Source: a virus. From it: 64,000 bases of DNA. Position numbers and translations under genes: made by a program. Below, in pieces: positions 58,440 through 60,931 of the stretch. The stretch is from positions 1 through 64,000 of the IMG/VR virus record IMGVR_UViG_3300047476_001426; one strand, 5' to 3'. Within the stretch, counting starts at the first letter, position 1. Each line of letters opens with the position of its first letter. The notes beneath the pieces are model-generated. The model saw nothing but the letters and a program-made list of their open reading frames with translations, had not been told where the DNA came from and ran no database searches.

Positions 58440-58445
58440 TTCACA

Positions 58446-58545
58446 CAGGACATCTTTGCCGATTTCCTCTCGTTTTTATAGTCTGTGGTGTTGAAACCAC
58501 AAAATGACCACAAACCCCCGACTCACCGTTGGGGGTTTTTTATTT
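58446..58545 (+). ncRNA. Candidate late small RNA ending in a terminator
   Basis: About 100 bases between a late-type motif and a terminator with no credible coding frame. It contains hairpin TGTGGT-GTTGAA-ACCACA (58484-58501) and a second ACCACA at 58507-58512 that could pair with the same TGTGGT instead. It could alternatively be the long 3' end of the ClpC-like mRNA. Confidence 0.4.
58512..58543 (+). terminator. Rho-independent terminator downstream of ClpC-like gene
   Basis: Stem AAACCCCC/GGGGGTTT with an 11-base loop, followed by a T-run. It separates the ClpC-like gene from the RNA repair cassette. Confidence 0.85.
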
Positions 58546-58576
58546 TTGGTATTCTAAAAATAATTCATTATATTTG
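58545..58576 (+). promoter_or_regulatory. Canonical early promoter for the RNA repair cassette
   Basis: TTTG (58545-58548), 20-base spacer, TATATTTG (58569-58576), followed by TGATAAAG. It lies 18 bases before the ATG at 58595 and fully matches the Bacteroidota pattern. Confidence 0.7.
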
Positions 58577-58594: not shown

Positions 58595-59008
58595 ATGGAA
58601 TATACAAAAGATTTGATACTTGTTCGTGGTATCCCGGGTTCTGGTAAATCGACTTTGGGTGAGGTAATATTATACACCCCAAATAATCCAATGAAACCTT
58701 TATCTGCGGATGATTACTTCATGGATAAAGAAGGTAATTACAACTTTGACCCCTCAAAAATAAGGGAGGCCCATAACGACTGCCAACAAAGATGTGCAAA
58801 CCTGATGATGAATTCAGTTGTCAGAGTTGTGGTTTCAAATACATTCACTCAAGAATGGGAAATGGAACCATATTTTGAAATGGGTCGTCGATATGGTTAT
58901 AGAGTCCATACAATCATTGTTGAAAATAGACACGGTGGTGAGAATGTTCATGGGGTCCCTGAAGACAAAATAGACATAATGAAAAACCGATTTGAAGTTA
59001 AGTTGTGA
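58595..59008 (+). CDS. Polynucleotide kinase-like P-loop kinase (137 aa)
   Basis: Reads KDLILVRGIPGSGKSTLGEV with Walker A GIPGSGKST (about 12-20), SADDYFMDKEGNYNFDPSKI, then REAHNDCQQRC, VVVSNTFTQEWEMEPYF and ENRHGGENVHGVPEDKI. This is the AAA_33-type kinase related to the 5' kinase domain of T4 Pnkp. T4 Pnkp also has a C-terminal 3' phosphatase domain, which is absent. It would phosphorylate 5'-OH ends of RNA or DNA. The stop overlaps the GTG start of the RNA ligase gene, so the two are coupled. Confidence 0.85.
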   Translation: MEYTKDLILVRGIPGSGKSTLGEVILYTPNNPMKPLSADDYFMDKEGNYNFDPSKIREAHNDCQQRCANLMMNSVVRVVVSNTFTQEWEMEPYFEMGRRYGYRVHTIIVENRHGGENVHGVPEDKIDIMKNRFEVKL

Positions 59009-60075
59009 TAGATAGACTGAAAAAATATCATGAAGATGGGTTGTTAATGAGACAAACACACCCAACTAAAGATTTGTACATATGGAATTATACCCCAAGA
59101 GTACAGTATGAATCTTTATGGGATGATATTACTACGCAATGTCGTGGACTCATTACAACTCATTCAGGTGAAGTCATATCAAGACCATTCGGTAAGTTTT
59201 TTAACTATGAAGAGGTTATTGATAAGGATTTAATTCCATGGGACAGTGAGTATGCTCACGTTCAAACAAAAATGGATGGTTCTCTTGGTATATTGTTTTT
59301 TTATGATGGTGAATGGATTATGGCAACAAGAGGTTCATTTACATCTGAACAATCAATTCGAGGATTAGAGATTATAAAATCAAAATACGATTTGAGTAAG
59401 TTTTCTGAGAAATTCACTTATCTATGTGAAATAATTTATCCTGAGAATAGAATCGTGGTAAATTACGGTGAGGATAAAATCACATTCTTATCTATAACCA
59501 CTCCTGAATCAGAATTAAATTGGGCAACATCAATAGCAATATTCCATTCATCAGATATCAAAGAAGAGGACATTGTTGATAGTACTATGGTGACCTTCAA
59601 TAAAGAAACTTTTGAAACTTACAAAAATCTAAACATACCAAATGAAGAGGGATTTGTTATTAGGTTCTACCCTTCTAATTTTAGAATGAAAATAAAGTTT
59701 GAGGAGTATGTTCGTTTACATAGAATATTAACGAATGTGTCTAATAGAGATATATGGGAAGTGCTCCGTACCAATGGTGATATGAAGGAAATACTTGATG
59801 GTGTACCAGATGAATTTTACGATTGGGTTCGCAAAACTAAAGAAGATTTATTATTTCAATACAAACACTTGGAACGTGAATATCAATGGATTTTTAAAAT
59901 CATTAATAGAGCACCCAACATAGAAAATCGAGCGGTTTTCGCGGAATACGCAAAAAGATATAAACACCCTTCAATATTGTTTAATATGTTGGATAATAAG
60001 GATTACTCTCAACAAATTTGGAAGTTAATCTATCCTTCGTATTCGAAACCATTTAATACAAATGAAGATAATTAG
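59005..60075 (+). CDS. T4 Rnl1-like RNA ligase (356 aa)
   Basis: Starts with GTG overlapping the kinase stop (GTGA). The nucleotidyltransferase motif I is HVQTKMDGSLGILFF, with the AMP-accepting Lys at about residue 89. Motif IIIa/IV is NEEGFVIRF and motif V is RMKIKF. An all-helical C-terminal domain follows (DEFYDWVRKTKEDLLFQYK), as in Rnl1 enzymes that repair tRNA. It seals 5'-phosphate and 3'-OH RNA ends, typically after kinase and cyclic-phosphate removal. Direct coupling with the kinase and cREC genes supports an RNA repair role. Confidence 0.9.
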   Translation: MIDRLKKYHEDGLLMRQTHPTKDLYIWNYTPRVQYESLWDDITTQCRGLITTHSGEVISRPFGKFFNYEEVIDKDLIPWDSEYAHVQTKMDGSLGILFFYDGEWIMATRGSFTSEQSIRGLEIIKSKYDLSKFSEKFTYLCEIIYPENRIVVNYGEDKITFLSITTPESELNWATSIAIFHSSDIKEEDIVDSTMVTFNKETFETYKNLNIPNEEGFVIRFYPSNFRMKIKFEEYVRLHRILTNVSNRDIWEVLRTNGDMKEILDGVPDEFYDWVRKTKEDLLFQYKHLEREYQWIFKIINRAPNIENRAVFAEYAKRYKHPSILFNMLDNKDYSQQIWKLIYPSYSKPFNTNEDN

Positions 60076-60502
60076 TAAGAAAAATTATTCAATGAAAACA
60101 AGAATTTATTTGGACGATGTGAGAACACCTGTTGAAAAAGACCAATGGGTTGTTGTTAGGAATTACGAGGAGTTCGTAAATAAAGTTAGTGAGATTGGTT
60201 TGGAGAACATCTCCTTAATATCGTTAGACCATGATTTAGGGGAAACCGCAATGGCGGAATGGCATCGTAATGTTTATCACAACTACGAGTTAGATTACGA
60301 TAATATCCTTGAGAAAACAGGAATGGATTGCACCAAATGGTTGGTTGAACAATGGATGGACGGTAAACCTGTTGTTGACGTTGTTGTCCACTCCGCGAAT
60401 GCGATTGGTAGTGGTAACATGATGGGTTATATTAACAATTATCGACATATTAATAGACTACCTCAGAATTGTATTAGGGTTCAGATTGAACACACTGTCT
60501 AA
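60062..60502 (+). CDS. Cyclic-phosphate processing receiver-like protein (cREC)
   Basis: 146 aa from the first ATG, which overlaps the ligase gene by 14 bases; an ATG at 60092 (MKTRIYLDDVRTP) is an alternative start. Motifs: RIYLDDVRTP, SLISLDHDLGETAMAE, and VDVVVHSANAIGSGNMMGYI. These match the cREC family, a receiver-like fold predicted to process 2',3'-cyclic phosphate ends in RNA repair systems. Here it could replace the missing phosphatase domain of T4 Pnkp and generate the 3'-OH needed by the ligase. The conserved Asp, His and HSAN residues are intact. Confidence 0.78.
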   Translation: MKIISKKNYSMKTRIYLDDVRTPVEKDQWVVVRNYEEFVNKVSEIGLENISLISLDHDLGETAMAEWHRNVYHNYELDYDNILEKTGMDCTKWLVEQWMDGKPVVDVVVHSANAIGSGNMMGYINNYRHINRLPQNCIRVQIEHTV

Positions 60503-60586: not shown

Positions 60587-60931
60587 ATGTCAACAAAAGA
60601 ACCGAACAAACCAAAAGACACGGTAATTAAAAAGCTAATACTAAAACAAGATTATAAAAACTTCAGTGATTTTTATAACATCAACAAAGAATCCATTTAC
60701 AGAACCTTAGCTAATCTTTTTAAAAGTTTGAAGAGAAAGGATAAACAAGTGGTTATTTTAGTTTTGGGAGCTAAAATTAATGGACTACAATGGGAGACCG
60801 AGCTAAAGTTTAAAAGACAAGAATCGGTTGTTTTAGTCAGAGATATTTTACCTTTCTTCGAACAAAATGAAGATTACGAAACTTGCGGTGAAATAACGGA
60901 AACCTACAATAAGATTTTAGAGATTCAATAA
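60587..60931 (+). CDS. Small early protein of unknown function (114 aa)
   Basis: A basic N-terminus with KDTVIKKLILKQDYKNFSDF, NINKESIYRTLANLFKSLKR and KQVVILVLGAKINGLQWETE, then an acidic C-terminal helix. It has its own early promoter, which suggests a host-takeover or regulatory protein expressed soon after infection. No family was recognised. Its 3' end overlaps the convergent exported lectin gene by 7 bases. Confidence 0.65.
   Translation: MSTKEPNKPKDTVIKKLILKQDYKNFSDFYNINKESIYRTLANLFKSLKRKDKQVVILVLGAKINGLQWETELKFKRQESVVLVRDILPFFEQNEDYETCGEITETYNKILEIQ

What the first reader, a model, noticed from the sequence alone, without database searches (positions are those of the whole stretch)
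58595..60502. RNA repair cassette: kinase, Rnl1-like ligase and cREC
Three overlapping genes under one canonical early promoter supply 5' phosphorylation, sealing, and a predicted 2',3'-cyclic phosphate processor. T4 uses Pnkp plus Rnl1 to undo tRNA cleavage by a host anticodon nuclease; here the Pnkp phosphatase half is missing and the cREC protein seems to take its place. This split design could counter tRNA-cutting defence in the host.
Basis: partly seen in the sequence, partly recalled or inferred. Interest (0 to 1): 0.72.

Follow-up and report, generated by a model that had tools for sequence, protein, structure and literature searches.

The report
Phage tRNA-repair genes: kinase, ligase, cREC
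A large bacteriophage carries a kinase gene, an RNA-ligase gene and a predicted RNA-end-processing gene side by side, probably to mend cut tRNAs during infection; this combination is already described in other phages, and the supposedly missing phosphatase is found in the more complete genomes of its close relatives.

Summary
The three genes are real, adjacent and co-directional: a 137-aa P-loop kinase (58595-59008), a 356-aa T4 Rnl1-family ligase (59005-60075) and a cREC (PF20274) receiver-fold protein (60092-60502). A fourth conserved gene (60587-60931) follows. The kinase-ligase-cREC block recurs in 34 other viral contigs, one lineage. A role in tRNA repair is the best reading: all Rnl1 catalytic motifs are kept, and 26 tRNA genes lie 10 kb downstream.

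The specific claim that the phosphatase half is lost and cREC takes its place is not supported. The kinase is not a truncated Pnkp but a standalone family (phrog_2071). The window's record (136 kb) is a fragment of a ~300 kb genome. All three larger relatives (233-311 kb) with the same block encode both a calcineurin-like phosphoesterase and a HAD 'Swiss-army-knife' RNA-repair phosphatase elsewhere. In seven isolated phages with the same kinase plus Rnl1, a calcineurin-like phosphoesterase lies nearby every time. cREC also occurs without any RNA ligase (phage immuto).

Kinase, T4-like ligase, cREC and occasional calcineurin-like enzyme together were described by Iyer et al. 2022, who with Iyer 2021 predicted the cREC function. 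Verdict: new member of a known kind.

The parts
58444..58541 (+). conserved 98-nt RNA element (three hairpins, the last a terminator), probable small RNA or 3' end of the upstream clp transcript
   Evidence: fold z = -4.3; alignment of 17 relatives with 6 pairs changed on both sides, most of them in the terminator; no Rfam match at gathering level; single copy, E 1.6e-24
58546..58576 (+). Bacteroidota-type promoter-like site, TTG-N20-TATATTTG
   Evidence: sequence; kept in the closer relatives; not enriched genome-wide
58595..59008 (+). standalone P-loop (AAA_33) kinase, 137 aa, predicted RNA 5'-OH kinase
   Evidence: Pfam AAA_33 4e-12, phrog_2071 2e-40; invariant K18, D39 and R112
59005..60075 (+). 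T4 Rnl1-family ATP-dependent RNA ligase, 356 aa, GTG start
   Evidence: RNA_lig_T4_1 1.6e-16; T4 Rnl1 structure 2c5u E 2.7e-11; invariant K89-x-D-G, E142, E215-G, K229, K231
60092..60502 (+). cREC receiver-fold protein, 136 aa (alternative start 60062, 146 aa)
   Evidence: PF20274 9.7e-22; AlphaFold2 pLDDT 93.9; receiver domains Z 9 to 11
60587..60931 (+). fourth conserved gene of the block, 114 aa, unknown function
   Evidence: 59 homologous ORFs among the fetched loci, next to cREC in the lineage; no Pfam or NCBIfam match, only a sub-threshold PHROG hit; model pLDDT 88.6 with only weak fold matches

Best explanation
The block is part of a tRNA (RNA) repair system of a ~300 kb Bacteroidota phage. 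[quoted passage not shown] The Rnl1-like ligase then seals the nick. cREC probably opens the cyclic phosphate (or processes a related cyclic nucleotide), and a calcineurin-like phosphoesterase and/or HAD_SAK phosphatase encoded elsewhere in the same phage genome finishes the 3'-OH. Shown by sequence: the families, catalytic motifs of the ligase, P-loop of the kinase, receiver fold and acidic residues of cREC, and the phosphatase genes in three larger relatives. Inferred: all enzyme activities, the tRNA substrate, the order of steps, and that the window's own phage has these phosphatases in its unseen part.
For: Ligase keeps every Rnl1 nucleotidyltransferase motif. Kinase and Rnl1 occur as a pair, with a calcineurin-like phosphoesterase within about 5 kb, in 7 of 7 isolated phages inspected. 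Relatives place ligase, phosphoesterase and kinase directly together (L042, L058, L072), and some carry one island with Rnl1, phosphoesterase, kinase, DRB0094-type ligase, two HAD_SAK_2 phosphatases and cREC (L028). 26 tRNA genes lie at 69.8-78.5 kb of the same record. G003, G011 and G012 have the block plus phosphoesterase plus HAD_SAK_2. G000 is colinear with G012 228-311 kb and then 0-32 kb, while the G012 phosphatases lie at 89-95 kb, outside the part covered. In a cellular genome cREC sits next to an Rnl2-type ligase and a phosphoesterase (L207).
Against: No activity has been shown for any cREC. cREC occurs in complete phage genomes with no detectable RNA ligase: immuto and Cellulophaga phi17:2. 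In L113/L114, cREC and the fourth gene remain where kinase and ligase are absent, so cREC need not act with them. In Capnocytophaga and relatives it sits by WYL-type regulator-like genes (my reading by eye). The kinase lacks the counterpart of T4 Pnkp R38. Rnl1-family ligases can also have the tail-fibre attachment role known for T4 gp63.
Confidence: 0.62

Rival explanations
1. One reading: the phage has no RNA 3'-phosphatase and cREC alone heals the 3' end, either fully or by opening the cyclic phosphate to 2'-phosphate/3'-OH so that the ligase seals a 2'-phosphate junction, as fungal Trl1 does.
For: Within the 136 kb seen, no calcineurin-like phosphoesterase, HAD_SAK_2, 2H, KptA or Sir2 was found. 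cREC has invariant acidic residues plus histidines.
Against: G000 is only part of a genome, and 3 of 3 larger relatives encode a phosphoesterase and HAD_SAK_2 while 0 of 12 short ones do. cREC and the phosphoesterase co-occur in 17 of 18 records of 150 kb or more.
Confidence: 0.1
2. cREC is not an RNA-end enzyme but degrades a cyclic nucleotide or ADP-ribose signal of host defence, and lies beside the repair genes only as part of an anti-defence region.
For: cREC without RNA ligase or kinase in immuto and phi17:2 and in L113/L114; near WYL-type regulator-like genes in Capnocytophaga-type genomes; Iyer et al. 2021 allow cADPr or 2',3'-cyclic nucleotide substrates.
Against: Repeated linkage to ligases, kinases, phosphoesterase and tRNA genes, including in immuto, where four tRNA genes and a phosphoesterase precede it.
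Confidence: 0.25
3. The ligase serves mainly tail-fibre attachment, as T4 gp63 also does, and the kinase is a nucleotide or metabolic kinase, so the block is not RNA repair.
For: phrog_562 is annotated 'RNA ligase and tail fiber protein attachment catalyst'; the kinase family is named only 'ATPase'.
Against: All ligase catalytic motifs are invariant; recurrent pairing with kinase and phosphoesterase.
Confidence: 0.08

Closest known systems
V5-like phage neighbourhood: Sir2, cREC, T4-like tRNA ligase, nucleotide kinase, calcineurin-like phosphoesterase (Iyer et al. 2022, PMC9503650)
   Same: Same kinase family, Rnl1-type ligase and cREC within a few genes, with phosphoesterase and tRNA genes; reproduced in phage MiataMamis
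   Different: No Sir2 found in G000, G003, G011 or G012; here the phosphoesterase is unlinked; gene order differs; a fourth gene of unknown function is present
T4 Pnkp plus Rnl1 tRNA repair
   Same: 5' kinase and Rnl1 ligase
   Different: Kinase is a different standalone family without the HAD domain; phosphatases are separate genes in the relatives; cREC added
Jumbo-phage cRec / RNA ligase linkages (Iyer et al. 2021, PMC7824862)
   Same: cREC domain family and the proposal that it clears 2',3'-cyclic ends for ATP-dependent ligases
   Different: The window's block is one particular arrangement from a Bacteroidota phage lineage
Clostridium thermocellum-type bacterial Pnkp (kinase, calcineurin-like phosphatase, ligase; from general knowledge)
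   Same: Same three activity types if the unlinked phosphoesterase is counted
   Different: Separate proteins, Rnl1-type ligase, plus cREC
Fungal Trl1 (ligase, kinase, cyclic phosphodiesterase; from general knowledge)
   Same: Possible division into ligase, kinase and cyclic-end opener
   Different: Receiver fold instead of 2H fold; no KptA found in G000, G003, G011 or G012

Membership tests
T4-type Pnkp (kinase-phosphatase) | P-loop and general-base Asp of the kinase | tested here: met
   GxPGSGKST with K18 and T20 invariant; D39 invariant
T4-type Pnkp (kinase-phosphatase) | catalytic Arg corresponding to T4 R38 | tested here: not met
   F42 at that place, nearly invariant in 18 sequences (placement by eye against T4)
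T4-type Pnkp (kinase-phosphatase) | C-terminal HAD phosphatase domain in the same protein | tested here: not met
   protein ends at 137 aa; only AAA_33 is over its cut-off
T4 Rnl1 family (PF09511) | ligase motifs I, III, IV and V with catalytic Lys | tested here: met
   K89-M-D-G, E142, E215-G, K229/K231 invariant in 21 sequences; E 1.6e-16 over the cut-off; but below TIGR02308's equivalog cut-off
T4 Rnl1 family (PF09511) | RNA sealing, tRNA repair | not testable with these tools
   needs biochemistry
cREC (PF20274) | profile match over the curated cut-off | tested here: met
   77.9 bits against 27
cREC (PF20274) | receiver fold with conserved aspartates | tested here: met
   model pLDDT 93.9, receiver domains fill the top 50 at Z 9-11; D8, D9, D46, H47 and D48 invariant in 72 sequences
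cREC (PF20274) | hydrolysis of cyclic phosphates | not testable with these tools
   prediction only, also in the literature
Iyer 2022 V5-type repair neighbourhood | T4-like ligase, cREC and kinase together | tested here: met
Iyer 2022 V5-type repair neighbourhood | Sir2 gene | tested here: not met
   no PF02146 match in G000, G003, G011, G012 or immuto; G000 is a fragment
Iyer 2022 V5-type repair neighbourhood | calcineurin-like phosphoesterase | tested here: inconclusive
   absent from G000 (fragment), present unlinked in G003, G011 and G012

The most novel reading that the evidence does not exclude
cREC is a receiver-fold cyclic phosphodiesterase that opens RNA 2',3'-cyclic phosphates to 2'-phosphate/3'-OH, letting an Rnl1-type ligase seal without any 3'-phosphatase (a split, Trl1-like pathway with an unrelated fold); the phosphoesterase and HAD enzyme elsewhere in the relatives would then serve other ends or substrates.
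Probability: 0.1. Interest if true: 0.72.

Novelty: new member of a known kind. Interest (0 to 1): 0.3.

Why it matters
It shows how fragment genomes can suggest a missing enzyme that is really encoded elsewhere. It also extends the published kinase / T4-like ligase / cREC repair set to a lineage of ~300 kb phages with a near-full tRNA set. cREC remains a widespread phage and bacterial enzyme family without any tested activity that I could find, and this lineage, where cREC is far more conserved than the ligase beside it, would be a good place to test it.

Tried and rejected
Sequence search of solved structures with cREC and its profile: nothing meaningful. Tried to show that cREC and the phosphoesterase exclude each other: they co-occur. 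RtcB, KptA, Sir2 and 2H as alternative end processors: no RtcB, KptA or Sir2 found; 2H only sub-threshold in G011/G012. Fourth gene: best Foldseek hits are Rai1/DXO-type proteins but E > 0.03 and TM below 0.45, and four of five models were weaker, so not claimed. Rfam on the upstream element: only sub-threshold hits. Amber recoding because of a CTA-anticodon tRNA: TAG is an ordinary stop in G003 and G012, so rejected. Burroughs and Aravind 2016 is not held.

Full report
Observation. The window holds three co-directional genes as described: a kinase 58595-59008 (137 aa), a ligase 59005-60075 (356 aa, GTG start) and a cREC protein ending at 60502. Pfam and PHROG assignments are clear. Kinase and ligase overlap by four bases. 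The cREC start used by most homologues is 60092, so ligase and cREC probably do not overlap. A fourth gene, 60587-60931, belongs to the block. The window lies in a 136,485-base virus record, G000.

Conservation. Scans of viral contigs with ligase and cREC, read with my own profiles, show kinase-ligase-cREC in this order in 34 other contigs, nearly always followed by the fourth gene and mostly preceded by a ClpA/B-like gene. Many of these contigs are near-identical phages, so this is one lineage. Elsewhere the same parts are shuffled: ligase, phosphoesterase, kinase (L042, L058, L072); phosphoesterase, cREC, kinase (L080); kinase, ligase, thymidylate-synthase-like gene, cREC (L064). L028 carries a large island with Rnl1, phosphoesterase, kinase, a DRB0094-type ligase, two HAD_SAK_2 phosphatases and cREC. 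In L113 and L114 kinase and ligase are absent and cREC plus the fourth gene remain, so kinase and ligase seem to come and go as a unit.

Ligase and kinase. The ligase matches T4 Rnl1 structures at about 3e-11 and keeps its motifs I, III, IV and V in all 21 aligned relatives. It does not reach NCBI's T4 RnlA equivalog cut-off. The kinase belongs to phrog_2071, whose members have about 41-47% identity to it in phages of Pseudomonas, Vibrio and Aeromonas and about 31-42% in coliphages and others. It hits T4 Pnk only weakly (phrog_505 5e-8; structure 1ly1 E 0.5) and has Phe where T4 Pnkp has Arg38 (my placement). It is therefore best read as a separate kinase family, not as a Pnkp that lost its phosphatase half.

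cREC. The alignment of 72 phage and cellular sequences has D8, D9, I43, S44, D46, H47, D48 and L49 invariant, and L7, R11, G50, G77, H100, S101 and N103 nearly so. The AlphaFold2 model is confident (pLDDT 93.9, pTM 0.86) and resembles receiver domains (best Z 11.2, rmsd 2.7 over 97 residues; Foldseek E-values are weak, best 0.019). This agrees with Iyer et al. 2021, who named the domain, predicted cyclic-phosphate processing and noted operons with RNA ligases (PMC7824862). It was still experimentally uncharacterised according to Iyer et al. 2022.

The missing phosphatase. In the 136 kb seen there is no calcineurin-like phosphoesterase, HAD_SAK_2, 2H, KptA or Sir2. But G000 is colinear with G012 (310,691 bases) from 228 kb to the end and then from 0 to 32 kb: it covers well under half of such a genome. 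G012 has a HAD_SAK_2 phosphatase at 93,979-94,500 and a calcineurin-like phosphoesterase at 89,466-90,119, outside that part; G003 has both at 179.9-184.6 kb. Of 15 records with the block (one of them, G007, with an inserted homing-endonuclease-like gene; G000 included), the three of 233 kb or more have both enzymes and the twelve of 142 kb or less have neither. Among cREC-bearing records of 150 kb or more, 17 of 18 have the phosphoesterase. Replacement of phosphatase by cREC is therefore unlikely.

Isolated phages. In seven isolates with this kinase and an Rnl1-type ligase (NoPa, phiA009, Ceto, MiataMamis, K408, vB_AbaM_P1, BME3) a calcineurin-like phosphoesterase lies within about 5 kb. MiataMamis also has Sir2 and a cREC (PF20274 9.6e-14) beside the ligase, as Iyer et al. 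2022 described for V5-like phages: T4-like tRNA ligase, cREC, nucleotide kinase, occasional calcineurin-like phosphoesterase (PMC9503650). The combination is thus published. Flavobacterium phage immuto (complete, 160 kb) has a cREC 79% identical and a phosphoesterase next to four tRNA genes, but no kinase or RNA ligase of the kinds searched. So cREC has a use without this ligase.

Mechanism. Best reading: part of a multi-enzyme tRNA repair system whose 3'-end phosphatases are encoded elsewhere. Context: 26 tRNA genes at 69.8-78.5 kb. Activities, substrate and the presence of the phosphatases in this very phage are inferred, not shown.

Upstream RNA. Between the clp-like gene and the kinase lies a 98-nt element with three hairpins, the last a terminator. 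It is conserved in 17 aligned relatives with six pairs changed on both sides, mostly in the terminator, folds better than all 200 shuffles (z -4.3; the terminator contributes much of this), and is found once per genome at E about 1e-22 in G003 and G012 and in L113/L114, which lack kinase and ligase. It follows the clp/cREC locus rather than the kinase-ligase pair. A second, different conserved element precedes the kinase (or cREC) in other relatives. Functions unknown.

Verdict. Observation confirmed; repair interpretation plausible; the novel part of the interpretation not supported. New member of a known kind.

Noticed in passing
window 58444-58541: Conserved 98-nt structured RNA element ending in a terminator between the clp-like gene and the kinase, single copy, in all members of the lineage checked; no Rfam family reaches its gathering score. 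It stays when kinase and ligase are absent.
   Followed up: partly
L030:5521-5600, L113:5910-5990 and nine other loci: A second conserved ~80-nt element (GAGTGCTCACTACC...GTGG...CACCACAGCTC) sits directly before the kinase, or before cREC where kinase and ligase are missing, in relatives that have a small extra ORF; no Rfam match.
   Followed up: partly
G000 69,787-78,458 (L002:9788-18459): 26 tRNA genes, a near-full set, including one with a CTA anticodon (called tRNA-Pyl by ARAGORN); TAG is still used as a stop in larger relatives.
   Followed up: partly
G000 72,180-72,419: An 80-aa conserved protein inside the tRNA cluster, whose homologue in L028 lies between the Rnl1-like ligase and the phosphoesterase; possible unrecognised RNA-repair or tRNA-related gene.
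   Followed up: no
L042:5361-5978, L080:2954-3580, G003:203324-203968: About 206-aa protein family without Pfam match, often beside ligase, kinase or cREC; may resemble a prim-pol domain by eye.
   Followed up: no
L274:6451-6857 (G012): ARAGORN predicts a tmRNA gene in the 311 kb relative; none was called in the corresponding part of the window's record.
   Followed up: no
L022:7135-7905: A GIY-YIG-like homing endonuclease ORF is inserted between ligase and cREC in one relative.
   Followed up: no
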